Of a stretch of DNA of 64,000 bases, positions 249-60,712 are shown piece after piece. The notes below the pieces were generated by a model. That model searched no databases, was not told the DNA's origin, and saw nothing but the letters and a program-made list of their open reading frames with translations. Each line of letters opens with the position of its first letter. The stretch's first letter is position 1. The stretch comes from an uncultured bacterium (GTDB taxonomy: Bacteria > Cyanobacteriota > Vampirovibrionia > Gastranaerophilales > Gastranaerophilaceae): the NCBI GenBank assembly GCA_949283255.1, contig CASDRS010000009.1, positions 1 through 64,000 on the forward strand, given 5' to 3'. The translations under genes and the position numbers were made by a program.

Positions 249-815
249 TTATTTTATAATTTCGTCTTGCGGGGCGATTTTTACTTCGTTAAAACATCCT
301 TCCAGAGCGGTTTTTGAGTCGGCACCTTTTTTCATTAATCTGTCGATTTTTGGTGATGCAACAAGCCAAGAATCCGTTTGTGATGAATATGCAACGTCAA
401 TCCTGTCTTTGCCTATTTTTAATTCAGAAAATGGGATTGAATATTTTTTGAAAAATTCTAGAAATTTGTTATATATGTCTTGGCTGCGTTTGGTAGGTTT
501 TGAGCCAACTAATATCCCTTGCAGATCAGGGTTTTTCAAGTCCATTTTTTGTGCAATATATTGTGTGATTGAGAAAAAATGATGATTACTTTCATTCATT
601 GGTGTGAGATGTAACATTAAGATGTCTTTTCCATCCGTTAATCCCATCATCGTACAATCACAAATACCTTTTGTGTAAGCTGCAGGTGCCTTAATTGATT
701 CGTTTATTGTCCAAGGATAATTTACGCTGTTTTTTGAACCGATTTTTACGGCTGCCTCTCCAAATGCTTTTTGAGTTACGGCTTGTATTCCTGATGTAAA
801 TGAGATTTCTGTCAT
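249..815 (-). CDS. CheD-like putative cysteine hydrolase-fold protein
   Basis: This 188-residue protein was not recognised with certainty. The N terminus holds ISFTSG, close to the F-x-G signature of several other proteins in this window. Around residues 51-72 there is a Cys-x-Cys, then LTDGKD and LMLHLTP. Later comes ILVGSKP, an amphipathic helix, and YSIPFSELKIGKDRIDVAYS. The order Cys, then His in a strand, then G-rich strand, helix and an IP-x(n)-G-x(n) strand pair resembles CheD glutamine deamidase (about 160 residues), so a CheD/CNF1-like hydrolase fold is my inference. No chemotaxis genes are nearby. The start has a GGAAGG Shine-Dalgarno. It lies downstream of rimO on the same strand with a 74 nt gap. 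Confidence 0.6.
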   Translation of the reverse strand: MTEISFTSGIQAVTQKAFGEAAVKIGSKNSVNYPWTINESIKAPAAYTKGICDCTMMGLTDGKDILMLHLTPMNESNHHFFSITQYIAQKMDLKNPDLQGILVGSKPTKRSQDIYNKFLEFFKKYSIPFSELKIGKDRIDVAYSSQTDSWLVASPKIDRLMKKGADSKTALEGCFNEVKIAPQDEIIK

Positions 816-2378: not shown

Positions 2379-3050
2379 TTACTTACCGCCAAACAATACT
2401 GCTTTAGCAGCTTGAGAGTTTGGCACAATTGATTGATCAAACATTACTACAGGATAAACATCTGTAGGGTTTGTAACTTTACAATCGGCATCGTGATATG
2501 TATTTGCATCGCATTTTACAAGTTTGTTAGGATTTTTGCTGCCATTAACGTCTATTACACCTTTACATGGGTGTCTAGTAACGGTAGCATTACCTTCTGT
2601 ACATTCTTTTGCGTCAGCTGCAAAAGATAAAGCAATACCATCATTAAAGAAATAAGTATAGTTGGTATCGGTACCAAATTCTAAAGTTGCTGTGTTGGTA
2701 TCATCTGTGCTAACAGTCCATTTATCGCTGCCTACACAACCTTCATTTGCACCGCAAACTCTTGCTACGTTCATTCTGTTGTTAAACAAGTTGTAAAGTG
2801 ATGCAGCTCCTTCAGCTTGACCACTCTCACCTGAAGCTGTAGCTTGAGACAAGTCATAGTCATCAAGAGCTACGTTCAATACAACTGCTTGAGACAATAC
2901 AGACAATGCTTTTTTGTAAGCTGTTCTATACTGTGCACCTTGTGTTGAATTCAATAATGTTGGCATAGTCATTGCGGCTACAACACCGATAATACCAAGC
3001 GTAATCAATACTTCTGCAAGCGTAAAAGCTTTCTTTGTTCCATTAGTCAT
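2379..3050 (-). CDS. Type IV pilin / pseudopilin-like protein
   Basis: This 223-residue protein starts with a short basic leader, then the class III signal FTLAEVLITLGIIGVVAAMT. The Glu at +5 after Phe+1 is present, which prepilin peptidase substrates need for methylation and assembly. The residue before the cleavage site is Ala (KKA|F) rather than the usual Gly. After the single N-terminal helix comes a globular domain with six cysteines (for example VCGANEGC and VKCDANTYHDADC), suggesting disulfides outside the cell. The start has a GGAGG Shine-Dalgarno. The gene stands alone with its own terminator, about 29 kb from the pilus operon at 32379-38116. It could be a minor pilin or a type II secretion pseudopilin. 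Confidence 0.85.
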   Translation of the reverse strand: MTNGTKKAFTLAEVLITLGIIGVVAAMTMPTLLNSTQGAQYRTAYKKALSVLSQAVVLNVALDDYDLSQATASGESGQAEGAASLYNLFNNRMNVARVCGANEGCVGSDKWTVSTDDTNTATLEFGTDTNYTYFFNDGIALSFAADAKECTEGNATVTRHPCKGVIDVNGSKNPNKLVKCDANTYHDADCKVTNPTDVYPVVMFDQSIVPNSQAAKAVLFGGK

Positions 3051-19653: not shown

Positions 19654-20199
19654 ATGCAAGTAAGTTTTACAGGTTTTAAAAATGCGTCGTCATTGAAGTT
19701 AGTGGATCCTAGGAATGGAGATACTGCTATTGGTATAAATGTCCAGCTTACAGATGACAGCTATGGAAAAGAATTAAGTGAGTTTAAGGATGTTTTAAAA
19801 AAGAATGAAAATACAAAAATTTATAGAAATCCTATAAATTCATCATTCTTAAATGTTGCAGCACTCATAGCAACAGATGGCAACGAAAGACAAAGTATAT
19901 TGGTATTGAATGGTAAGCCGTTAAATCCTAGTGACGAAACTTTGGGGTTGTATTCGTTTATTGCTAAATTAACAAGAGAACTCGTATCAACAAAACCAGA
20001 AAAGTTTGTAGTGAACAGGGATTTTCTAGACAGTGAAGATTTACGTTATGGCTTGATAGTAGGGCAAGATATGAAGGCGTTTTGTGGTGATAAGTACGAT
20101 GAAGTAGTTTCCCGTATTCACGATCCGGCGCAAGTTAAAATCGGTGCAAAAGTGGTTAACGACACTGTGCAAGATGTAATGGTGGATTATTTAGCATAA
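19654..20199 (+). CDS. Hypothetical protein with N-terminal F-x-G signature
   Basis: This 181-residue protein was not recognised. It starts MQVSFTGFKNASSLKL, the clearest case here of the hydrophobic-x-F-x-G signature also seen near the N terminus of proteins at 249, 29210, 52051 and 52540. There is no signal peptide or membrane helix. The body is mixed alpha/beta with ILVLNGKPL near residue 89 and YGLIVGQDM near 133. The start has a CAGGAG Shine-Dalgarno. It stands alone with its own terminator. Confidence 0.75.
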   Translation: MQVSFTGFKNASSLKLVDPRNGDTAIGINVQLTDDSYGKELSEFKDVLKKNENTKIYRNPINSSFLNVAALIATDGNERQSILVLNGKPLNPSDETLGLYSFIAKLTRELVSTKPEKFVVNRDFLDSEDLRYGLIVGQDMKAFCGDKYDEVVSRIHDPAQVKIGAKVVNDTVQDVMVDYLA

Positions 20200-29209: not shown

Positions 29210-29911
29210 TTATTCACTTTCCATGAAACTTCTCAATTTCATTCTCATAGTTCGTACTTCTTTGGCACTAAGACAATCTTGCAAAGTTCCAAGTTTGAAA
29301 GCGCCATTATTGTATTTTTTGTCATTATCAAAAACTTTTAGGAAGGATATTAATATATCCATAGCAGCTCCGTTATTACCCGGAGATTTTGTTTCTCTTG
29401 CAATACTGTTCCCTGGTGTATAATCCTTAGTAAATTCGTCTGATAAAGGTACTCCTGCCATTGTCAGGCTTTCCTCATTTGCAGCATTCTTCAATATTGC
29501 AGCATTTGTAATAATCATTCTTCTCATTACATCCTTGTTAGCATTACTATATTTTACAAGTTCAATAGCTTCGTATGTGTTATCATCGTCGTCTAAGCTA
29601 AGTTTGTTTATACCATAGCAAGCTTTTCCTCTTTCGCCAAGGTCAAAATGCTGAATAATTTTAGGCTGTTTTTCAGGTAACGGGTTGCTTTGTATTAGTT
29701 CCGTTACAACGTGTTGTGGTTCCATAGGCTCTGTTGCATTAATTTTATTAAGCGGACTCATTGCCATCAATACTACGACAGGAACAGCTTTTACTTGTGC
29801 TGGAATTCTCTGGTACAAGCTAGGTGATTCATTGTTGTTGTTTCTTCTGCCACTAAATGAAACTTTTGCGGTGCTAAGCGGCGTCACACCTGATACTGGT
29901 TGCAAAGCCAT
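29210..29911 (-). CDS. Hypothetical protein with F-x-G signature
   Basis: A 233-residue protein, not recognised. After MALQPVSGVTPLSTA it has KVSFSGRRNNNN, the F-x-G signature at residues about 18-22, followed by an Asn-rich spacer. A short hydrophobic segment (VKAVPVVVLMAMS) near 41-53 could be a membrane or signal-like helix. The rest is polar and helical. The ATG at 29911 follows AAGGAG; an upstream TTG is unlikely. It lies about 100 nt upstream of the 931-residue gene on the same strand. Confidence 0.7.
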   Translation of the reverse strand: MALQPVSGVTPLSTAKVSFSGRRNNNNESPSLYQRIPAQVKAVPVVVLMAMSPLNKINATEPMEPQHVVTELIQSNPLPEKQPKIIQHFDLGERGKACYGINKLSLDDDDNTYEAIELVKYSNANKDVMRRMIITNAAILKNAANEESLTMAGVPLSDEFTKDYTPGNSIARETKSPGNNGAAMDILISFLKVFDNDKKYNNGAFKLGTLQDCLSAKEVRTMRMKLRSFMESE

Positions 29912-32295: not shown

Positions 32296-32378
32296 CAATA
32301 TGTCGATAGAGTAACTTTAAAGTGAAGAGAGAAATTGGATAGAAAAATAGTATGAAAAATATAACAGGGATGCCTATT

Positions 32379-32999
32379 ATGAAAAAAAGAATTAAGATGC
32401 TATTTGTGTTGGTGTGTGTGGCTACGCTGACATTTAGTCTTGTTGGTTGTGGTCAAAAATCTGATACGGATGATGTGTTAGGAGATCTTCCGGAACAAGC
32501 AGGAACTGAAATCCCTATGGATGAAAGCTCAAATGATAATGTTGTAGATATACCTGCTGAGGAAGATACAGATAAGATGGTGTCTATCCCTGTAGAAGAT
32601 TTAGGAAGGGCAAATCCGTTTTTGCCGCCAAATGAGGCAAGTATGATGGCTTCAGCCCCACACGAAAGATTACAATATGATTTGTTAGAGCCTTTAGAGT
32701 CTCCGAGTGTGGATTCGACAGCACAGAGAGTTGTCACAACAAAAGTCTCAGGTATAATGTATGATAGAAACAATCCGTCAGCAATATTAAATATAGAAGG
32801 ATCAGATTATTTGGTAAGATCCGGAGATGTAATTAACGGTTACAAGGTATTATCAATAGGTAAAAATAGTGTAACTGTTCAAATGGGTTCAAATGTATAT
32901 AAGGCTGGAGTTGGTCAGTTAGTGACTAGTGGTCAGGCTGATGTAAATTACAATAAGGTCGCAAATTTGAATAAAAAATTTGGCGGAGCTAACAGGTAG
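32379..32999 (+). CDS. PilP-like lipoprotein of the pilus/secretion operon
   Basis: A 206-residue lipoprotein. The signal MKKRIKMLFVLVCVATLTF ends with the lipobox LVGC, so Cys24 would be lipidated. An acidic linker holds ANPFLPP, a motif common in PilP/GspC-like proteins. The C-terminal domain (about 125-195) reads VSGIMYDRNNPSAILNIEG, DYLVRSGDVINGYKVLSIG and SVTVQMG, a PilP-type beta domain that docks to the secretin. The ATG at 32379 has an AGGGA Shine-Dalgarno; an ATG 27 nt upstream is less likely. It is the first gene of a four-gene operon. Confidence 0.75.
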   Translation: MKKRIKMLFVLVCVATLTFSLVGCGQKSDTDDVLGDLPEQAGTEIPMDESSNDNVVDIPAEEDTDKMVSIPVEDLGRANPFLPPNEASMMASAPHERLQYDLLEPLESPSVDSTAQRVVTTKVSGIMYDRNNPSAILNIEGSDYLVRSGDVINGYKVLSIGKNSVTVQMGSNVYKAGVGQLVTSGQADVNYNKVANLNKKFGGANR

Positions 33000-33032
33000 A
33001 GTAATAAAATAAGAAGATAAGCAGGAGCAGCG

Positions 33033-34826
33033 ATGAAAAATACGATTAAAAAAATTACAGTATGTACGATGTTGTTAGCGTTTGCGTTAACAGCGCCGGT
33101 TTCATCATCATTGGCAATTGGGACTGATAGTAACCTATTGGCGTACAGTGCAGATTATATGCCATCAATCAGAGGTAGTGAGCCTTCAATTGTTAAATTG
33201 GAAGGGGATACCGGCATTACCAGAAAAAATACAATTATAAACCTGAGTTTAAGAGATTCTGATGTTCAGCAGGTATTAAGAATGTTTGCTGATAAGGCAG
33301 GTTTAAATATTATATTTAAGGGTGACATCAAGGACAAAGTTACAATGGATTTGGTAAATGTTCCTTTGAATTCTGCTTTTAATATGGTATTGACTACAAC
33401 AGATTTGTCATACACTCTTCAGGATAACACTTTAATAATTACCAAGAATGATGACAAATCAAGTGTTGCAAAGCAGGAAATGGCAGTTATTCCTGTTAAG
33501 TATGTTGACGCTACCGCTGTTGCAAAATTTTTGAATACAAACATTTACGGAATGAAGAAACCTGGTTTGTCAGGTTCTGATATTGCAACAACAAATCCTG
33601 CAACAAACGAAGTTTTAATATTCGGAAATAATAATGATGTAGCTATAGCACGAAAGGTAATAAGCCAATTTGATAAAAAGCCTGTAGTAACATCTTTCAA
33701 AGTTAATCACACAACTCCTGCTCAAATGGCAGATATGATTTGTAAGATTTTATTGCCAAGCGCTGGTGCTTCAACAGGTGGTGCAGCCGGAATAATGACA
33801 GGTGCTGCTGCTGAAAGCGATATTACTTTAGGTGAAGGTACAGTTGCTTGTTCAGGCAGTGCAGGGGATGCAGGCGGTAAAAATACAGCTCCGCTTAATT
33901 TAAAAAGCTTATCTGTTGCTTATTATACTCAGTTAGGAACCGTAAACTTAATAGGTGGTTCTCCTCAGCAAATCGAGATGGTTAGAGATTTTATCGCATC
34001 TAACGATAAACGTCAACCTCAGGCTTACATTGAATTCTCAATTATCGAGTTGACAGAAACCGGTTCAAGAGAGTTCAACAATGCTTGGAGCTACACAAGC
34101 AGACACTTCTCTGTAAATACAGATAACAACGGAAATACATCATTTGGTGATAAAGGTGTTGGTATTTTTGGCGGTCAAAACAGACCTACATATAGTACGG
34201 GTGCTACAGGATCCGCTTCACTTGTTTATACTCTTAATATGATGATTAAAAATGGTAAGGGTCGTACAATATCAAATCCTAGAATTATTGCAACAAACGG
34301 ACAAGAATCTACGATTGATATGACGGGTGATTACGTTAAAACTGTAACATCTCAGGTTGTACAAGGTACTTATTCAAGTAATGCTACAACTCAAAGAACA
34401 TACGAAATCGGTGATGATGAAGGTATAAAGATTACCGTTACTCCTTTCATTTCTCCTGACGGTTATGTATATTTGAACTTGAAACCTGATTATACAACTA
34501 TTAAGGAAAAAATTTATGCAGCTGCTGCTGATGAAGAGGCTGCTGCACAAGGATTGCAAGATTTGCAAGCTACATTGCTTCAAAAGAGAAACCTTGAATT
34601 GAAGAATGTAAGAATTAAGGACGGTGATACTTTAGTTATCGGTGGTATGATGAGAGAAACAGAAACTAAGACAGTTTATAAAGTTCCGTTCTTAGGAGAC
34701 ATTCCTGGATTGGGTGCTCTTTTCAGAAGCTCTAATGTTGAAAAAGAAAGATCTGAGTTGGTTATCTTGATTACACCAAAGATTATCGTTGATTCAGATA
34801 CATCTTCAGCAGGCGATTCACTATAA
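33033..34826 (+). CDS. Secretin, type IV pilus PilQ / type II GspD family
   Basis: The outer-membrane ring through which pili or proteins pass. The 597-residue protein has a signal peptide (KKITVCTMLLAFALTAPVSS), N-domains with IINLSLRDSDVQQVLRMFA and DKVTMDLVNVPLNSAF near 70-110, and the secretin core after about residue 330. GKGRTISNPRIIATNGQ, VTPFISPDGYV and the final KVPFLGDIPGLGALFR are diagnostic. A Gly/Ala-rich insertion with Cys residues lies near 245-290. It shares an operon with the lipoprotein, ATPase and platform protein. Confidence 0.93.
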   Translation: MKNTIKKITVCTMLLAFALTAPVSSSLAIGTDSNLLAYSADYMPSIRGSEPSIVKLEGDTGITRKNTIINLSLRDSDVQQVLRMFADKAGLNIIFKGDIKDKVTMDLVNVPLNSAFNMVLTTTDLSYTLQDNTLIITKNDDKSSVAKQEMAVIPVKYVDATAVAKFLNTNIYGMKKPGLSGSDIATTNPATNEVLIFGNNNDVAIARKVISQFDKKPVVTSFKVNHTTPAQMADMICKILLPSAGASTGGAAGIMTGAAAESDITLGEGTVACSGSAGDAGGKNTAPLNLKSLSVAYYTQLGTVNLIGGSPQQIEMVRDFIASNDKRQPQAYIEFSIIELTETGSREFNNAWSYTSRHFSVNTDNNGNTSFGDKGVGIFGGQNRPTYSTGATGSASLVYTLNMMIKNGKGRTISNPRIIATNGQESTIDMTGDYVKTVTSQVVQGTYSSNATTQRTYEIGDDEGIKITVTPFISPDGYVYLNLKPDYTTIKEKIYAAAADEEAAAQGLQDLQATLLQKRNLELKNVRIKDGDTLVIGGMMRETETKTVYKVPFLGDIPGLGALFRSSNVEKERSELVILITPKIIVDSDTSSAGDSL

Positions 34827-34853
34827 TTAATATCAATTATTTAAGAAAATAAA

Positions 34854-36881
34854 ATGAACGAATTACAAAACAGATTAAAAAATAGTATTAATAAACAAAT
34901 AATAAATCAAGTTGATAAGGCACTGATGGAACAATATAAATTTGTTCCTATCAGTGTCAAAGACAAGTATTTGTTTGTTGCTATTAATTCAAAATCTGAT
35001 AAAGATACTGTAAATGAAAAGTTAAAACAAACCCTAAACTATCCTATTAAATTTATTCAGGTTCCGGATAAGGATTTGGATGAACTTATTGTTGATGTAG
35101 TTGGCAGTATGTCACCTTCCGCAACAGAAGATAAAGTTGTACCTAATGTAGTACCCCAACCTCAATCTAAGTTGGGTGAACTGTTTATCGAAAAAGGTTA
35201 TATTACTGATGTTCAGTTATTGCAGGCCTTAGCCGAAAGTAAACGTCAAAAAGTGCCGGTTGGTTCAATGTTATTTAAGCTTGGTTTCATAACATTGGAA
35301 CAATTGAAGGAAGTTTTACACGGACAGACCGGATTTGAGATGGTTACGTCCGAGCAGCTTGCAAAGCAGAGTGCTTTTATAAATATTTTGCCTGAAGATT
35401 TTATTAAGAATAACAAGGTTGTTCCTATTTCTTCTGATGGCAAGACTCTTGTTTTAGGTGTTGTGGCACCTGTTAAACCGGATGTTTTAAAAGAAATTAT
35501 CTATTTGACCGGTCAAAATCCTAAACAATTGTTGATGACTCACTACGAGTTTACCAATTGTATGGAAACCTTCTTCTCTGAGCAGAAGAAAGAGACTCAA
35601 AAAATTATAAACCAAATTGAGGATGAAGCTGCAACTTTGCAGGTGGAAAGCTCTCTTTGGGAACAGGTTGATAATGAGTTACAAGATTCCAGCGGTTCTA
35701 TAGCAAAGTTTGTAAATCAGATTATTACAACAGCTATTGATACTCATGTTTCAGATATTCACATTGAGCCAAGACTTCAGGGGTATATTGTTCGTTACAG
35801 AAAAGACGGTATGCTTTCAAAAGTTTTGAATATTCCTTCAAAGGTAGAGACTTCCGTAATCTCTCGTTTTAAAGTTTTGTCAAGAATGAATATCGCAGAA
35901 CACAGAAGACCTCAAGATGGTACTTTTTCAATCAAGTATAAGAACCAATCTTATGATTTCCGTATCAATACCCTTCCTGTTGCTGGTAAAGAAAAGGTTT
36001 GTATCCGTGTATTGGCACCTGCTGTTTCATTGAATGCTGCGGATAAAAATATTCATCTTGTTGGCGGTACTCCGGAAGATATTGAAAAGATTAAGATTAT
36101 GACTTGCTGTCCGAATGGTATTATATTGACATCAGGTCCTACCGGTTCAGGTAAAACAACAACTTTGTATTCAGTTCTGAAGAGCTTAAACAATGAAGAT
36201 GTAAATATTACAACAATTGAAGACCCTATAGAAATTAAGTTGGAGGGTATTAACCAATCTCAAATTAATGCGAAGGCGGGTATTACGTTTGCATCTTGTA
36301 TGAGAGCTATCTTACGTCAGGACCCTGATATTATCCTTGTCGGTGAAATTCGTGACTATGAAACATTGGAAATTGCGATTTCCGCTGCGTTAACAGGTCA
36401 CCTTGTATTGAGTACTGTTCACACGAACTCAGCAGCAGCGACTGTCACCCGTATGGTAGAAATGGGTGCAAAAGATTATTTGGTTGCTTCTACATTATCA
36501 GGCGTTATTGCTCAGCGTTTGGTAAGAAAACTTTGTGATGATTGCAAGGAAGAGTATTATCCGACACGTGAAGAAGTTTCACAGATTACGGTTGACGAAG
36601 AAGAAATTGAAAGAATTATGAAAACACCTATATATCGCGCAAAAGGATGTAATAAATGCGGATTTTCGGGATATAAAGGCCGATTGGGTGTATATGAAAT
36701 TATGTCCATTAACAAGGGTATTAGAAAATTAATTGCAGCAGGAGCCCATGATATAGAAATTGAGGAACTTGCTATAAAGAATGGAATGAGAACGTTGAAT
36801 CAATCTTGTATCGGACATATTTTGAACGGTCAGACTACAATAGAAGAGTTTGTCCGAGTTCTGGGTATTGTAAATGAATAG
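34854..36881 (+). CDS. pilB: Type IV pilus/type II secretion assembly ATPase, PilB/GspE family
   Basis: The hexameric motor for pilus or pseudopilus extension. At 675 residues it has two N-terminal MshEN-like modules (about 1-85 and 105-240), HVSDIHIEPRLQG near 298, the Walker A TSGPTGSGKTTTL near 425, the Asp box IEDPIEIKLEGINQ, Walker B ILVGEIRD near 496, the His box HLVLSTVHTNSA near 518 and a zinc knuckle CDDC / CNKCGFSG near 560-605. The last fits PilB and GspE and excludes the retraction ATPase PilT. The ATG has only a weak ribosome site. Confidence 0.93.
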   Translation: MNELQNRLKNSINKQIINQVDKALMEQYKFVPISVKDKYLFVAINSKSDKDTVNEKLKQTLNYPIKFIQVPDKDLDELIVDVVGSMSPSATEDKVVPNVVPQPQSKLGELFIEKGYITDVQLLQALAESKRQKVPVGSMLFKLGFITLEQLKEVLHGQTGFEMVTSEQLAKQSAFINILPEDFIKNNKVVPISSDGKTLVLGVVAPVKPDVLKEIIYLTGQNPKQLLMTHYEFTNCMETFFSEQKKETQKIINQIEDEAATLQVESSLWEQVDNELQDSSGSIAKFVNQIITTAIDTHVSDIHIEPRLQGYIVRYRKDGMLSKVLNIPSKVETSVISRFKVLSRMNIAEHRRPQDGTFSIKYKNQSYDFRINTLPVAGKEKVCIRVLAPAVSLNAADKNIHLVGGTPEDIEKIKIMTCCPNGIILTSGPTGSGKTTTLYSVLKSLNNEDVNITTIEDPIEIKLEGINQSQINAKAGITFASCMRAILRQDPDIILVGEIRDYETLEIAISAALTGHLVLSTVHTNSAAATVTRMVEMGAKDYLVASTLSGVIAQRLVRKLCDDCKEEYYPTREEVSQITVDEEEIERIMKTPIYRAKGCNKCGFSGYKGRLGVYEIMSINKGIRKLIAAGAHDIEIEELAIKNGMRTLNQSCIGHILNGQTTIEEFVRVLGIVNE

Positions 36882-36892
36882 TAGGATATAGT

Positions 36893-38116
36893 ATGGCAAT
36901 ATATAACTATGAAGCGTTAAAAAACGGAAAAGAAGTTGTTAAAGGAAAAGTAGAGGCCGAGGATATTCGTGAGGCCCGTGATAATGTCCGTAAACTTGGT
37001 TTTTTGCCGACAAAAGTATATGAAGAAAAGATTGGTAAAGAGGCAAAAACTGAGGCTTCTAGTGGTGTAAACCCAGGTCAAATGAAAGCATTAGGTTTGA
37101 CTGATAAGATGGAATTTACATCAACGCTTCAAATTTTGGCATCATCCGGTATTCCAATGATTGAATCTTTGATGTTTATCGAAAATGATGCAGCAAAGTT
37201 AAAGATTAGATTAGTTGCCAAAGAGCTCAGACGTCAGATTATGGCTGGTGCTACGTTTGCAGATACGTTGGCAAAATATCCTGAACAGTTTGGACAGATA
37301 TATATCGGTTTGTGTAAGGCCGGTGAAGATTCCGGTGAATTGGAAAAGACATTGGATCGTTTGTTGGAAATTTTGACCAAACAGTCAAATATCAGAAGTA
37401 AGGTTATTGGTACATTGATGTATCCTTGCTTTGTAATTTGTTTGGCTGTAATTATTGTCCTTGTCATGTTGATGTTTGTATTCCCTGTATTTAAAGATAT
37501 GTTTGATAATATGGGAAAATCTTTGCCGTGGATTACTCAGACATTGATGGATGCAGGCTTATTTTTAAGAAAATATTGGTTGTTTGTACCTTTAATGTTA
37601 GGTGGTGCTGTATTTTCAATAGTCTATCTTTTCAAATGGCCGACCAGCCGTAAACAGATTGATAAAATTTCGTTAGAAATACCTTTGTTAAAGGATTTGG
37701 TTCAATTTTCCAACTTTGCAAACTTCATTGCCGTAATGCAAGTTGCTTATGAAGCAGGTGTTCCTATTGTAGAATGTTTGTATTTGGCAAATTTAACACT
37801 TACAAATTTTACGCTTCAGCAAAAAATAGAGCATGCGACATCTTTGGTTCAGCAAGGTCAGCATTTGTCAGTTGCTTTGAGAACTACAGAATCAGTTCCG
37901 AAGATGATATTATTTATGATTGCAACAGGTGAGCAGTCAGGTCGTTTGGGCGAAATGTTAGATCAGGCCACTAAATATATTGATAAAAAGCTTGATGCAA
38001 TTGTTGATACTATGACAAAAATGATTGAACCTTTGATGTTGATTGTAATCGGTAGTATTGTATTAACATTGGCTCTTGCGTTATATCTGCCATTGTTTGG
38101 ATCTTATGTAGAATAG
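36893..38116 (+). CDS. pilC: Inner-membrane platform protein, PilC/GspF family
   Basis: The 407-residue platform protein on which the ATPase acts. It has two T2SSF domains (about residues 70-195 and 275-397), each beginning with short helices (FTSTLQILASSGIPMIESL and FANFIAVMQVAYEAGVPIVECL) and ending in a membrane segment. Three membrane helices are seen near 175-200, 220-245 and 375-400. The C terminus YLPLFGSYVE matches the family. It follows the ATPase after 11 nt. Confidence 0.93.
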   Translation: MAIYNYEALKNGKEVVKGKVEAEDIREARDNVRKLGFLPTKVYEEKIGKEAKTEASSGVNPGQMKALGLTDKMEFTSTLQILASSGIPMIESLMFIENDAAKLKIRLVAKELRRQIMAGATFADTLAKYPEQFGQIYIGLCKAGEDSGELEKTLDRLLEILTKQSNIRSKVIGTLMYPCFVICLAVIIVLVMLMFVFPVFKDMFDNMGKSLPWITQTLMDAGLFLRKYWLFVPLMLGGAVFSIVYLFKWPTSRKQIDKISLEIPLLKDLVQFSNFANFIAVMQVAYEAGVPIVECLYLANLTLTNFTLQQKIEHATSLVQQGQHLSVALRTTESVPKMILFMIATGEQSGRLGEMLDQATKYIDKKLDAIVDTMTKMIEPLMLIVIGSIVLTLALALYLPLFGSYVE

Positions 38117-52050: not shown

Positions 52051-52458
52051 ATGACAGTAGATGCAGTAAATTCAGTAAATTTTCAAGGTAGAAAAGGTTC
52101 TTATACTAAGAATGGTAACGAATACAATAAAACACATGCCGGTAAATATGTTGGTATGGGTTTAGGTGCTATTGTTGGTGCGGGATATCCTTTATATATC
52201 CTGCGTGAGGTTCAAAAAGATAAGCCTTTCTTTAAAAAAGTATTAGTAAGATGTCGTCAGGAATTTAAAAACGGATTGGCACAGTCAGGTGTGGATGTTT
52301 CAAACCTTAAGATGTCTGCGAAGTCAGTTTCAAAAGTTCTTAAGGGTATTCCTGTAGTTACAGGTGCGATTACATTATTAGTAGGCTTAGGAGTTGGTGC
52401 TATTGTAGATGGTATTATTAACCACGTAAAAGCCAAAAAAGCTGATAAAGCTGCTTAG
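52051..52458 (+). CDS. Lineage-type F-x-G membrane protein, first of a tandem pair
   Basis: A 135-residue protein, not recognised. It begins VDAVNSVNFQGRKGSYTKNG with the F-x-G signature. Two glycine-rich hydrophobic segments follow: KYVGMGLGAIVGAGYPLYI (about residues 31-51) and GIPVVTGAITLLVGLGVGAIVDG (about 100-125), with a basic stretch between and a Lys-rich tail. It shares the layout and several motifs with the next gene. The ATG at 52051 follows AAGGTG; a GTG 9 nt upstream is possible. Confidence 0.75.
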   Translation: MTVDAVNSVNFQGRKGSYTKNGNEYNKTHAGKYVGMGLGAIVGAGYPLYILREVQKDKPFFKKVLVRCRQEFKNGLAQSGVDVSNLKMSAKSVSKVLKGIPVVTGAITLLVGLGVGAIVDGIINHVKAKKADKAA

Positions 52459-52539: not shown

Positions 52540-52983
52540 ATGGCTATTACAGCAATAAATACAATTAATTTTAAAGGGAATGAGAATTCTACAGTAAAAG
52601 ATTCAAAAAATTCTGAAAAAAGCTATAAACAATCCAATATCGGAAAATATGTTGGACTTGGTGCTGGGGCTATTATTCCGGGCGGTTATGGGCTTCGTTT
52701 CGTAAATAACGTAAATAAGTCTGTTTCTTTGAAAAAGATTTTGGTAAAATATTTGGACTTTGGGGTTACTTCTTTTTCTTCTAATAGTTCTGTTAAGGAT
52801 TTTTTGGAGAGTATTGAGGTTTCCAGACAAGACTATAGAAAATCTAGGTATAAAGTGATATCAAGAGGATTGAAAATTTTACCTGTGGTACTGGCTGCTG
52901 CCGGTATGCTTGTCGGGCTCGGTATAGGTGCTGTTGCGGATTGCATAATTGATAAATTTCACGCTAAAAAAAACAAAAACTGA
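52540..52983 (+). CDS. Lineage-type F-x-G membrane protein, second of a tandem pair
   Basis: A 147-residue protein with the same layout as the 52051 product: TAINTINFKGNENS near the N terminus (F-x-G signature), KYVGLGAGAIIPGGYGLRF near residue 37, LPVVLAAAGMLVGLGIGAVADC near 118, and a Lys-rich tail. The matches to the first copy in both glycine-rich segments suggest gene duplication. Function is unknown. The start has AAAAGG. A terminator follows shared with the opposite strand. Confidence 0.75.
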   Translation: MAITAINTINFKGNENSTVKDSKNSEKSYKQSNIGKYVGLGAGAIIPGGYGLRFVNNVNKSVSLKKILVKYLDFGVTSFSSNSSVKDFLESIEVSRQDYRKSRYKVISRGLKILPVVLAAAGMLVGLGIGAVADCIIDKFHAKKNKN

Positions 52984-59553: not shown

Positions 59554-60186
59554 TTAAGCTTTTGCGTTAATTTTATTTGTATTTTGGGTTTCATTTTGCG
59601 TTTGAACATTGTCTTTTTTCGCTTTTTTAGGTTCGAAACCCAGAGTTTTCATTATAGGGTGGATTACAAGATTGCTTAACTCTGATGCAAACAATGCAAG
59701 TCCCAATATTGTTCCGACCAAATAACTAAGCTCGATTACACCTTTTTCGGTTTTATATAAATTTGGATGCTCAAGAGTAAGTAAATCTTTGTGCAAGTTT
59801 GTCGGAACTTTTTCTAATAATGCGTGATTTTGTCTGTTTTTTAGCGGCATTAGAGCTAATTTTCTGTAACTTTCATATTCTCCAACATTTTTGAACTTAG
59901 GAAGGTCTTTTTCATTTTTTAGAATTTTCTGTGCTGCTTTAAATATCGGCTTCTTAAAAACAGGGCCGACTATTCCTAAGTAAATTCCAAGACATAACAT
60001 TTGATAGACAGCTTCTTTTGTTGCGGTATATTTTTTTGTTTTGTCATCGATAGATTTATCGTGCATTATGAAAAATGGTCTTCCGGTTGCTTTGAATAAA
60101 GATTCCGTGGTAACTGTTGCTCTTGTGTTTTGCGCAAATCTTACAAATGTTGGATTGGTTAATATATTTGTTATTTGTCCTATCAT
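59554..60186 (-). CDS. Lineage-type membrane protein, second of a paralogous pair
   Basis: A 210-residue protein, not recognised. It shares a layout with the 60191 gene: TGRPFFIMHDKSIDDKTKKYTATKEAV (near 39-65), a glycine-rich first hydrophobic segment (YLGIVGPVFKK), then KAAQKILKNEKDLPKF, and a final hydrophobic segment near 160-185 (YLVGTILGLALFASEL) with IHPIMKTLGF. The Lys/Asn-rich tail is disordered. The ATG at 60186 has GGAGGATAG. It lies 11 nt from the PQ-loop gene. Confidence 0.7.
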   Translation of the reverse strand: MIGQITNILTNPTFVRFAQNTRATVTTESLFKATGRPFFIMHDKSIDDKTKKYTATKEAVYQMLCLGIYLGIVGPVFKKPIFKAAQKILKNEKDLPKFKNVGEYESYRKLALMPLKNRQNHALLEKVPTNLHKDLLTLEHPNLYKTEKGVIELSYLVGTILGLALFASELSNLVIHPIMKTLGFEPKKAKKDNVQTQNETQNTNKINAKA

Positions 60187-60190
60187 TTGC

Positions 60191-60712
60191 CTATCCTCCA
60201 ATCCTTAAGCCGCTATTGTATCTAGGATACGTCTGGATAGGCGTAATTTTATTTATTTTTCCTGTGAAATTCGGGCTTTTTTGTTGTTTTGGATTAACCG
60301 GATTTGAAGGTTTTGTTTGCGGTAAAAATGTGTGCATTAGAGGAGTCGTGATTTTATTGCAGATAAGCGGGATTAAAAATAATGCGGTAATACTTACTGA
60401 CACAAGTGTAGATGTAGCTTTGATTTGCGGAAGCTTTTCTTCTGCGTGTGCAGCATGTGCAAGTGCCTGTGCTGCTTTTTGGGTTATTGCATTTGTTCCT
60501 ATATAACTTGCAAAGGCTACAGCTCCTGTTGTCCCTTCTCTGAATGCTGTGTATTGTCTTGATCTTTTATCCTGTTTTTTGTCCATCATCGTTATTACAG
60601 GACGCAATACTCCCTTCGAAACGGCTATTGTTAATGCTCCGTATAGAGAGTTATTTTTGTTGCCTAAAAAATCACAAACGCTTCTGAAATATTTGGGGAA
60701 TGTATTATTCAT
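60191..60712 (-). CDS. Lineage-type membrane protein, first of a paralogous pair, with F-x-G near the C terminus
   Basis: A 173-residue protein related to the 59554 product. RPVITMMDKKQDKRSRQYTAFREG parallels RPFFIMHDKSIDDKTKKYTATKE, and ITALFLIPLICNKITTPLMHTF parallels the final segment of the other. The tail holds SPNFTGKINK, the F-x-G signature at the C terminus instead of the N terminus. Two hydrophobic segments are seen. The start has GAAGGTG. The two genes are 5 nt apart and evidently a duplicated pair. Confidence 0.7.
   Translation of the reverse strand: MNNTFPKYFRSVCDFLGNKNNSLYGALTIAVSKGVLRPVITMMDKKQDKRSRQYTAFREGTTGAVAFASYIGTNAITQKAAQALAHAAHAEEKLPQIKATSTLVSVSITALFLIPLICNKITTPLMHTFLPQTKPSNPVNPKQQKSPNFTGKINKITPIQTYPRYNSGLRIGG

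What the first reader, a model, noticed from the sequence alone, without database searches (positions are those of the whole stretch)
19654..20199. A shared F-x-G peptide signature on unrelated small proteins
Six otherwise dissimilar proteins share hydrophobic-x-F-x-G: VSFTG (19654), VSFSG (29210), VNFQG (52051), INFKG (52540), ISFTSG (249, slightly changed) and PNFTG near the C terminus (60191). In most it lies within the first 25 residues and is followed by Arg/Lys/Asn-rich sequence. None has a classical signal peptide; several have glycine-rich membrane segments. This looks like a sorting, docking or processing tag for a dedicated system, possibly lineage-specific. The function is inference.
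Basis: partly seen in the sequence, partly recalled or inferred. Interest (0 to 1): 0.75.

Follow-up and report, generated by a model that had tools for sequence, protein, structure and literature searches.

The report
N-terminal F-x-G tag, likely export signal
A short peptide tag near the start of dozens of unrelated, fast-changing proteins in a gut relative of cyanobacteria is real, and it most likely marks them for export, perhaps through a filament-less flagellum-like pump that these bacteria keep.

Summary
Plain F-x-G is near chance (120 vs 107), but [VIP]-[SNATQ]-F-x-G in residues 2-70 occurs in 28 of 1237 sampled ORFs against 5.7 expected (26 vs 5.7 families). It is not enriched further in, at C termini, reversed, or with F replaced by Y, L, W, M or A. 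About 45 tagged ORFs fall into 41 unrelated families: orphans, membrane proteins, DSP phosphatase, mTERF, AAA, CheR, DEAD helicase. Orthologues keep the F (12/12, 9/9, 11/11, 13/13; 7/9 in a fifth family) while bodies diverge. AlphaFold leaves the tag outside the fold in two families. Leaders are Asn/Ser-rich and acid-poor, without signal peptide. Three tagged window proteins are 37-47% identical to a close relative where most syntenic neighbours are 70-99%.

The genome has no flagellin yet keeps a flagellum-type export apparatus; its FlhA is a separate clade, found in 34 of 38 genomes of the order (the other four are 75-90% complete). Best explanation: an N-terminal type-III-like export signal for an effector-like protein set. 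The tag is shown; the link to the pump is inferred.

The parts
19654..20199 (+). Tagged orphan protein, 181 aa; tag MQVSFTG at residues 1-7 (19654-19674)
   Evidence: F and G kept in 12/12 members; tag lies before the predicted fold, which starts at residue 8; 47% identity to the G006 orthologue where neighbours are 72-97%
19660..19674 (+). Core motif V-S-F-T-G
   Evidence: F, T and G invariant in the 9-member alignment; rest of the protein averages 51% column identity
29210..29911 (-). Tagged protein, 233 aa from the ATG; leader MALQPVSGVTPLSTAKVSFSG
   Evidence: F kept in 13/13 members including the query, G in 4/13; 37% identity to G006 where the fructose-bisphosphate-aldolase-like neighbour is 99.4%
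29849..29863 (-). Core motif V-S-F-S-G
52051..52458 (+). Tagged glycine-rich membrane protein, 135 aa; paralogue of 52540
52075..52089 (+). Core motif V-N-F-Q-G
52540..52983 (+). Tagged glycine-rich membrane protein, 147 aa
   Evidence: 7 of 9 family members keep the motif; L093 and L094 lost it
52564..52578 (+). Core motif I-N-F-K-G
249..815 (-). Possible member, 188 aa; MTEISFTSG (motif 792-806)
   Evidence: fits the looser motif with S at +2; orthologues not examined, membership uncertain
60191..60712 (-). NOT a member: C-terminal PNFTG (60260-60274)
   Evidence: C-terminal motif frequency equals chance, 4 vs 4.1; paralogue L072:8567 lacks it

Best explanation
The motif is a short N-terminal sorting signal, roughly M-[KRQN]-[IV]-(0 to 55 Asn/Ser/Thr-rich, acid-poor residues)-[VIP]-[SN]-F-[TKGQS]-[G/A]. 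It sits on a large, fast-evolving, patchily distributed set of proteins in Gastranaerophilales (a non-photosynthetic gut lineage related to cyanobacteria). Shown here: the tag is N-terminal, acts at the peptide level, is shared by unrelated proteins, is conserved against diverging bodies, and lies outside the predicted fold of two members. Inferred: it is an export signal, read in the cytoplasm as an unfolded leader, for the non-flagellar, flagellum-type type III export apparatus that nearly every genome of the order keeps. Tagged proteins would be threaded out through the FliPQR/FlhB/FlhA gate and short rod of a basal body without filament, to the cell surface or into a partner cell.
For: N-terminal enrichment 28 vs 5.7 ORFs (0/200) with none elsewhere; 26 vs 5.7 families; F replaced by Y/L/W/M/A or reversed order not enriched; 45 tagged ORFs in 41 body families. 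Codons vary. Orthologue conservation. AlphaFold: fold of 19654 starts at residue 8, residues 1-3 pLDDT <50; DSP phosphatase residues 1-6 <50 although F6 is invariant. Uncurated leaders: acidic 5.1% vs 10.7%, N/S/T/P/Y/Q 43% vs 28%, 0/2000 length-matched draws; curated set 0/45 with a hydrophobic N-terminal segment vs 19% of other ORFs. Ser/Thr/Pro/Asn coil enrichment is also described for type III signals (PMC3617162). Export apparatus: FliE, FliF, FliH, FlhA; FliP, FliQ, FliR, FliO, FliN-like, FlhB; FliI; rod proteins. Flagellin is absent from 20 of 38 genomes, own included, while the second FlhA is in 34 of 38, including 19 of those 20, and 87-99% identical in 46 of 47 other same-family genomes of a wider draw, a separate clade. 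Tagged proteins diverge much faster than most syntenic neighbours. Cyanobacterial homologues of the DSP phosphatase lack the tag. A tagged ORF (L035:12231) lies 2.3 kb from flhB.
Against: No genetic or physical link between tag and apparatus is shown: nearly all genomes have the apparatus, so co-variation could not be tested. The apparatus's own rod proteins carry no such tag. Several tagged domains (DEAD/DSHCT helicase, AAA, HD-GYP-like) are usually cytoplasmic. Known type III signals have no common linear motif (PMC3617162). Replication in relatives is weaker: 12 vs 6.4 (p=0.03) for the tuned G motif, 9 vs 2.8 (p=0.0025) for P-x-F-x-[GA], 3 vs 1.0 (p=0.08) untuned. The residue classes were tuned on the same genome, and the list of about 45 was partly chosen by eye.
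Confidence: 0.45

Rival explanations
1. The tag is a real short linear motif that docks proteins inside the cell (a membrane domain, a scaffold or an internal compartment), not an export signal.
For: Several tagged domains are typically cytoplasmic and many tagged proteins have internal hydrophobic segments; terminal, unstructured, aromatic-centred motifs are also typical of docking peptides (general knowledge).
Against: Fast divergence and patchy distribution of tagged proteins are not typical of internal housekeeping cargo; no shell or scaffold system was identified (not searched for systematically).
Confidence: 0.25
2. The tag is an export signal, but for another route (the PulD/GspE/GspF-like system in the window at 32352-38116, or an unrecognised secretion system).
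For: The window encodes proteins that read as a secretin, a GspE-type ATPase and GspF (my reading of the translations). The leader lacks a Sec-type hydrophobic core, as a non-Sec route would need.
Against: Type II secretion normally needs a Sec or Tat signal first (general knowledge), and no Sec-like core is present in the tagged set. Other secretion systems were not searched one by one.
Confidence: 0.15
3. A processing or retention signal: the leader is cut near the F, or lets a partner hold the protein until release.
For: Conserved unstructured N-terminal peptide followed by a variable body.
Against: Residues right after the motif are not conserved across families; no protease candidate was identified or searched for.
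Confidence: 0.1
4. Compositional accident: AT-rich N termini give Asn/Ser/Ile/Phe-rich leaders, and the motif is picked from them by tuning.
For: Plain F.G is near chance; classes were tuned on this genome; replication in relatives is modest.
Against: Composition-preserving shuffles, internal-position controls, the family-level count, the untuned motif and orthologue conservation all exceed chance.
Confidence: 0.05

Closest known systems
Type III secretion N-terminal signals of effectors (injectisome)
   Same: N-terminal, unstructured, Ser/Thr/Asn/Pro-rich, leucine- and acid-poor leader with no signal peptide, on unrelated proteins (PMC3617162)
   Different: Known signals share no common linear motif according to PMC3617162; here an F-centred motif recurs. 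Secretion is untested.
Flagellar type III export apparatus retained by non-flagellated bacteria (Lysobacter enzymogenes, PMC9927559; Buchnera, from memory)
   Same: Export gate and basal-body genes kept without flagellin; in Lysobacter it still secretes FlgD
   Different: Here a separate FlhA clade exists beside the true flagellar FlhA in flagellated relatives, so it is a second system, not only a remnant. Di Rienzi 2013 (PMC3787301) and Soo 2014 (PMC4040986) read the partial gene set of gut Melainabacteria as flagellar loss.
PEP-CTERM / LPXTG-type sorting tags (from memory)
   Same: Short shared tag on many otherwise unrelated proteins of one lineage
   Different: Those are C-terminal with a hydrophobic stretch and follow Sec export; this one is N-terminal with neither

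Membership tests
Type III secretion substrate | Unstructured N-terminal leader without a Sec-type signal | tested here: met
   Curated set: 0/45 with hydrophobic N-terminal segment; leader outside the fold in the two families modelled. Cleavage not testable.
Type III secretion substrate | Ser/Thr/Asn/Pro enrichment and Leu/acid depletion in the leader | tested here: met
   compared with PMC3617162
Type III secretion substrate | Secretion depends on the export apparatus | not testable with these tools
   Needs an experiment
Type III export apparatus (SctRSTUV core) | FliP/SctR, FliQ/SctS, FliR/SctT, FlhB/SctU, FlhA/SctV all present | tested here: met
   FliP and FlhB pass their NCBIfam equivalog cut-offs; FliQ, FliR and FlhA fall below theirs but match over most of the model (FliQ E 1e-14, FliR 1e-47, FlhA 1e-212); FlhA is over the Pfam cut-off
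Type III export apparatus (SctRSTUV core) | Dedicated ATPase FliI/SctN | tested here: met
   G000:C14:73454-74740, 554 bits, over cut-off
Flagellum | Flagellin filament | tested here: not met
   No Flagellin_N in the own genome or its genus; present in 18 of 38 genomes
Injectisome (non-flagellar T3SS) | Secretin SctC and needle SctF | not tested
   Not searched; rod proteins of flagellar type are present instead
Sec signal peptide | Hydrophobic core in first 40 residues | tested here: not met

The most novel reading that the evidence does not exclude
Gastranaerophilales carry a second, non-flagellar type III system that recognises a readable N-terminal linear motif and exports a large, rapidly evolving effector repertoire, including enzymes with eukaryote-like domains such as mTERF, towards neighbouring cells or the host.
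Probability: 0.35. Interest if true: 0.9.

Novelty: new variant of a known kind. Interest (0 to 1): 0.78.

Why it matters
If right, dozens of orphan proteins per genome in a common, mostly uncultured gut lineage become a predicted secretome, and the leftover flagellar genes of non-motile Melainabacteria get a function. A type III-like signal with a visible linear motif would also bear on the open question of what such signals have in common. The motif is simple enough to test with one leader-reporter fusion and one F-to-A change.

Tried and rejected
Plain F-x-G and broad hydrophobic-x-F-x-G: near chance. An unbiased triple search was swamped by general N-terminal composition. A self-training weight matrix overfitted and was not used for statistics. 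A nucleotide-level cause was rejected because codons vary. A C-terminal version of the tag was rejected. Pfam gave no family above cut-off for the window proteins. Foldseek found no PDB match with E <= 0.001 for the 19654 fold. Samples of 100-200 kb from G017, G047, G046 and G038 were too thin to decide presence or absence. Literature searches found no description of this tag; three papers hold both Melainabacteria and type III secretion, none on this subject by title and abstract.

Full report
Setting. The window is contig C9:1-64000 of a 1.82 Mb genome. Relatives of 19654 in named records are Candidatus Gastranaerophilales, Melainabacteria or unnamed bacteria, so the source is most likely a gut Gastranaerophilales, of the non-photosynthetic sister lineage of cyanobacteria.

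Observation. 52051 and 52540 are paralogues, so they count as one. To test chance I took 60 stretches of the own genome plus the window (about 1.26 Mb), called 1237 non-overlapping ORFs with a simple caller, and compared motif counts with within-segment shuffles that keep composition. Plain F.G in residues 2-40 is near chance, but [VI][NSTQ]F.G is 11 vs 3.2 with 0 of 300 shuffles as high. Reading the hits showed that proline also serves at -2; [VIP][SNATQ]F[polar/small]G gives 28 vs 5.7 and P[SNATQ]F[..][GA] 19 vs 2.3 in residues 2-70. Neither is clearly enriched at 71-140, 141-210 or the C-terminal 69 residues. Counting families instead of proteins gives 26 vs 5.7, highest shuffle 12 of 200. 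Replacing F by Y, L, W, M or A, or reversing the motif, removes the excess; I and V at the F position show a slight one (17 vs 10.2 and 14 vs 8.5). Because those classes were tuned here, I also used the untuned window motif [VI][SN]F[TSQK]G on the genome outside the window: 5 vs 0.9, p=0.002. In relatives the same motif gives 3 vs 1.0 (p=0.08), the tuned one 12 vs 6.4 (p=0.03), P-x-F-x-[GA] 9 vs 2.8 (p=0.0025). So the class is firm in this genome and present but less certain in density elsewhere. False hits remain among the 28 (by my reading a thymidylate kinase, ribosomal protein S6, and two signal peptides ending in PAFAG), about as many as chance predicts.

The class. I curated 45 tagged ORFs, which fall into 41 groups by body homology. 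Pfam recognises a DSP phosphatase, an HD-domain protein (and a second at borderline), a DEAD/DSHCT helicase, two CheR methyltransferases, an mTERF protein, a starch-synthase-domain protein and two AAA ATPases; many have no match. Consensus around the motif: I/P/V at -2, S/N at -1, F, T/G/K/Q at +1, G (27 of 43) or A/N/S at +2. Codons are used synonymously, so selection is on the peptide. About nine tagged ORFs cluster in C4:80-91 kb.

Conservation. Orthologues of 19654 found with the whole protein keep F and G in 12 of 12 while the body falls to about 30% identity. In the DSP phosphatase family F is invariant in 9 aligned members and G kept in 7; cyanobacterial homologues start without the leader. 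Eleven mTERF-domain proteins all carry a motif-like x-F near the N terminus, with G, S, A, N or K at +2. In the 29210 family F is kept in 13 of 13 and G in 4. In the 52540 family two of nine lost the motif. The core is therefore the F, usually with a hydrophobic residue or proline two before it; the G is a preference. AlphaFold models of two families (mean pLDDT 87.5 and 87.7) place the tag before the first structural element, in low-confidence tails. Strong conservation of a segment that takes no part in the fold points to recognition by something else.

Leader. Between the start and the motif, tagged proteins are rich in N (2.3-fold), S, Q, R, Y and T and poor in E (0.23-fold) and L (0.45-fold) relative to other N termini; none of the 45 has a hydrophobic N-terminal segment (19% of others do). 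That set was chosen partly by eye, so I repeated the test without curation on 35 ORFs: acidic 5.1% vs 10.7%, N/S/T/P/Y/Q 43% vs 28%, 0 of 2000 length-matched draws as extreme. An analysis of known type III signals reports serine enrichment and exposed coil with Thr, Pro and Asn, and says no common motif is known (PMC3617162).

Evolution. Compared with the same-genus genome G006, whose FlhA is 99.1% identical, the tagged proteins 19654, 29210 and 52051 are 47, 37 and 46% identical while conserved syntenic neighbours are mostly 70-99%. Their distribution is patchy (15, 14 and 9 of 38 genomes). This is how effectors and surface proteins often behave (general knowledge).

Candidate machine. The own genome has no flagellin, like 19 others of the 38, but keeps FliE, FliF, FliH and FlhA in one locus (L009), FliO, FliP, FliQ, FliR and a FliN/SctQ-like protein in another (L014), FlhB (L035), FliI and three flagellar-type rod proteins (L216). 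By score, this second FlhA type (about 685-731 bits, one truncated copy) is in 34 of 38 genomes; the four without it (G009, G015, G026, G036) are 75-90% complete. Flagellated relatives have an additional FlhA near 870-890 bits. Nineteen of the 20 flagellin-less genomes keep the second FlhA. The two types are separate clades with full support, though long branches warn against reading the deep order. In a phylum-wide draw the second FlhA is 87-99% identical in 46 of 47 other same-family genomes, 47% in another order of the class, 37-40% in flagellated members elsewhere, and no match was found in many genomes of the phylum, including the sampled control G046. Earlier papers read the partial flagellar gene sets of gut Melainabacteria as flagellar loss; one noted two flhA genes in the groundwater genome ACD20 (PMC3787301, PMC4040986). 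The conservation seen here argues for a working second system. In 35 of 38 genomes there is also a soluble FlhA cytoplasmic-domain paralogue without the membrane half (L250, own C9:88918-90015). In FlhA that domain is a docking platform for substrates (general knowledge), so it is an obvious candidate reader of the tag, but nothing here shows it.

Judgement. That the motif is a genuine N-terminal sorting-type signal I hold at about 0.9. That it is an export signal for this apparatus I hold at about 0.45: signal position, leader composition, lack of a Sec signal, effector-like evolution and the conserved apparatus agree, but there is no direct link, the apparatus's own rod proteins lack the tag, some tagged domains are usually cytoplasmic, and presence of the apparatus hardly varies within the order, so correlation could not be used.

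Noticed in passing
Own contig C9:88918-90015 (L250), about 25 kb right of the window: Soluble FlhA cytoplasmic-domain paralogue (492 aa, no membrane half, extra N-terminal region) in 35 of 38 genomes of the order; possible dedicated substrate receptor.
   Followed up: partly
L009:8918-14997, L014:12700-16398, L035:8850-9935, L216:386-1926: Flagellum-type export core and short rod in a genome without flagellin, with an FlhA clade separate from the true flagellar FlhA of relatives.
   Followed up: partly
L048:5667-7412 and loci L152-L165: mTERF-domain proteins, otherwise known mainly from eukaryotic organelles (general knowledge), in 9 of 117 class genomes over the cut-off and none of 14 controls; all start with a tag-like leader.
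   Followed up: partly
L043:173-11194 (own C4:80-91 kb): Cluster of about nine tagged ORFs, including two CheR-like methyltransferases.
   Followed up: no
L035:10603-12216: 5'-nucleotidase-family protein without a signal peptide but with an Asn/Pro-rich leader, lying between flhB and a tagged ORF.
   Followed up: no
window 59554-60201 and 60191-60712; L072:8567-9738: Pair of adjacent, mutually related membrane proteins of unknown function, with a second copy of the pair elsewhere in the genome.
   Followed up: no
window 32352-38116: Operon that reads as secretin, GspE-type ATPase and GspF-like proteins (type II secretion or type IV pili), with a pilin-like ORF at 2379-3050.
   Followed up: no
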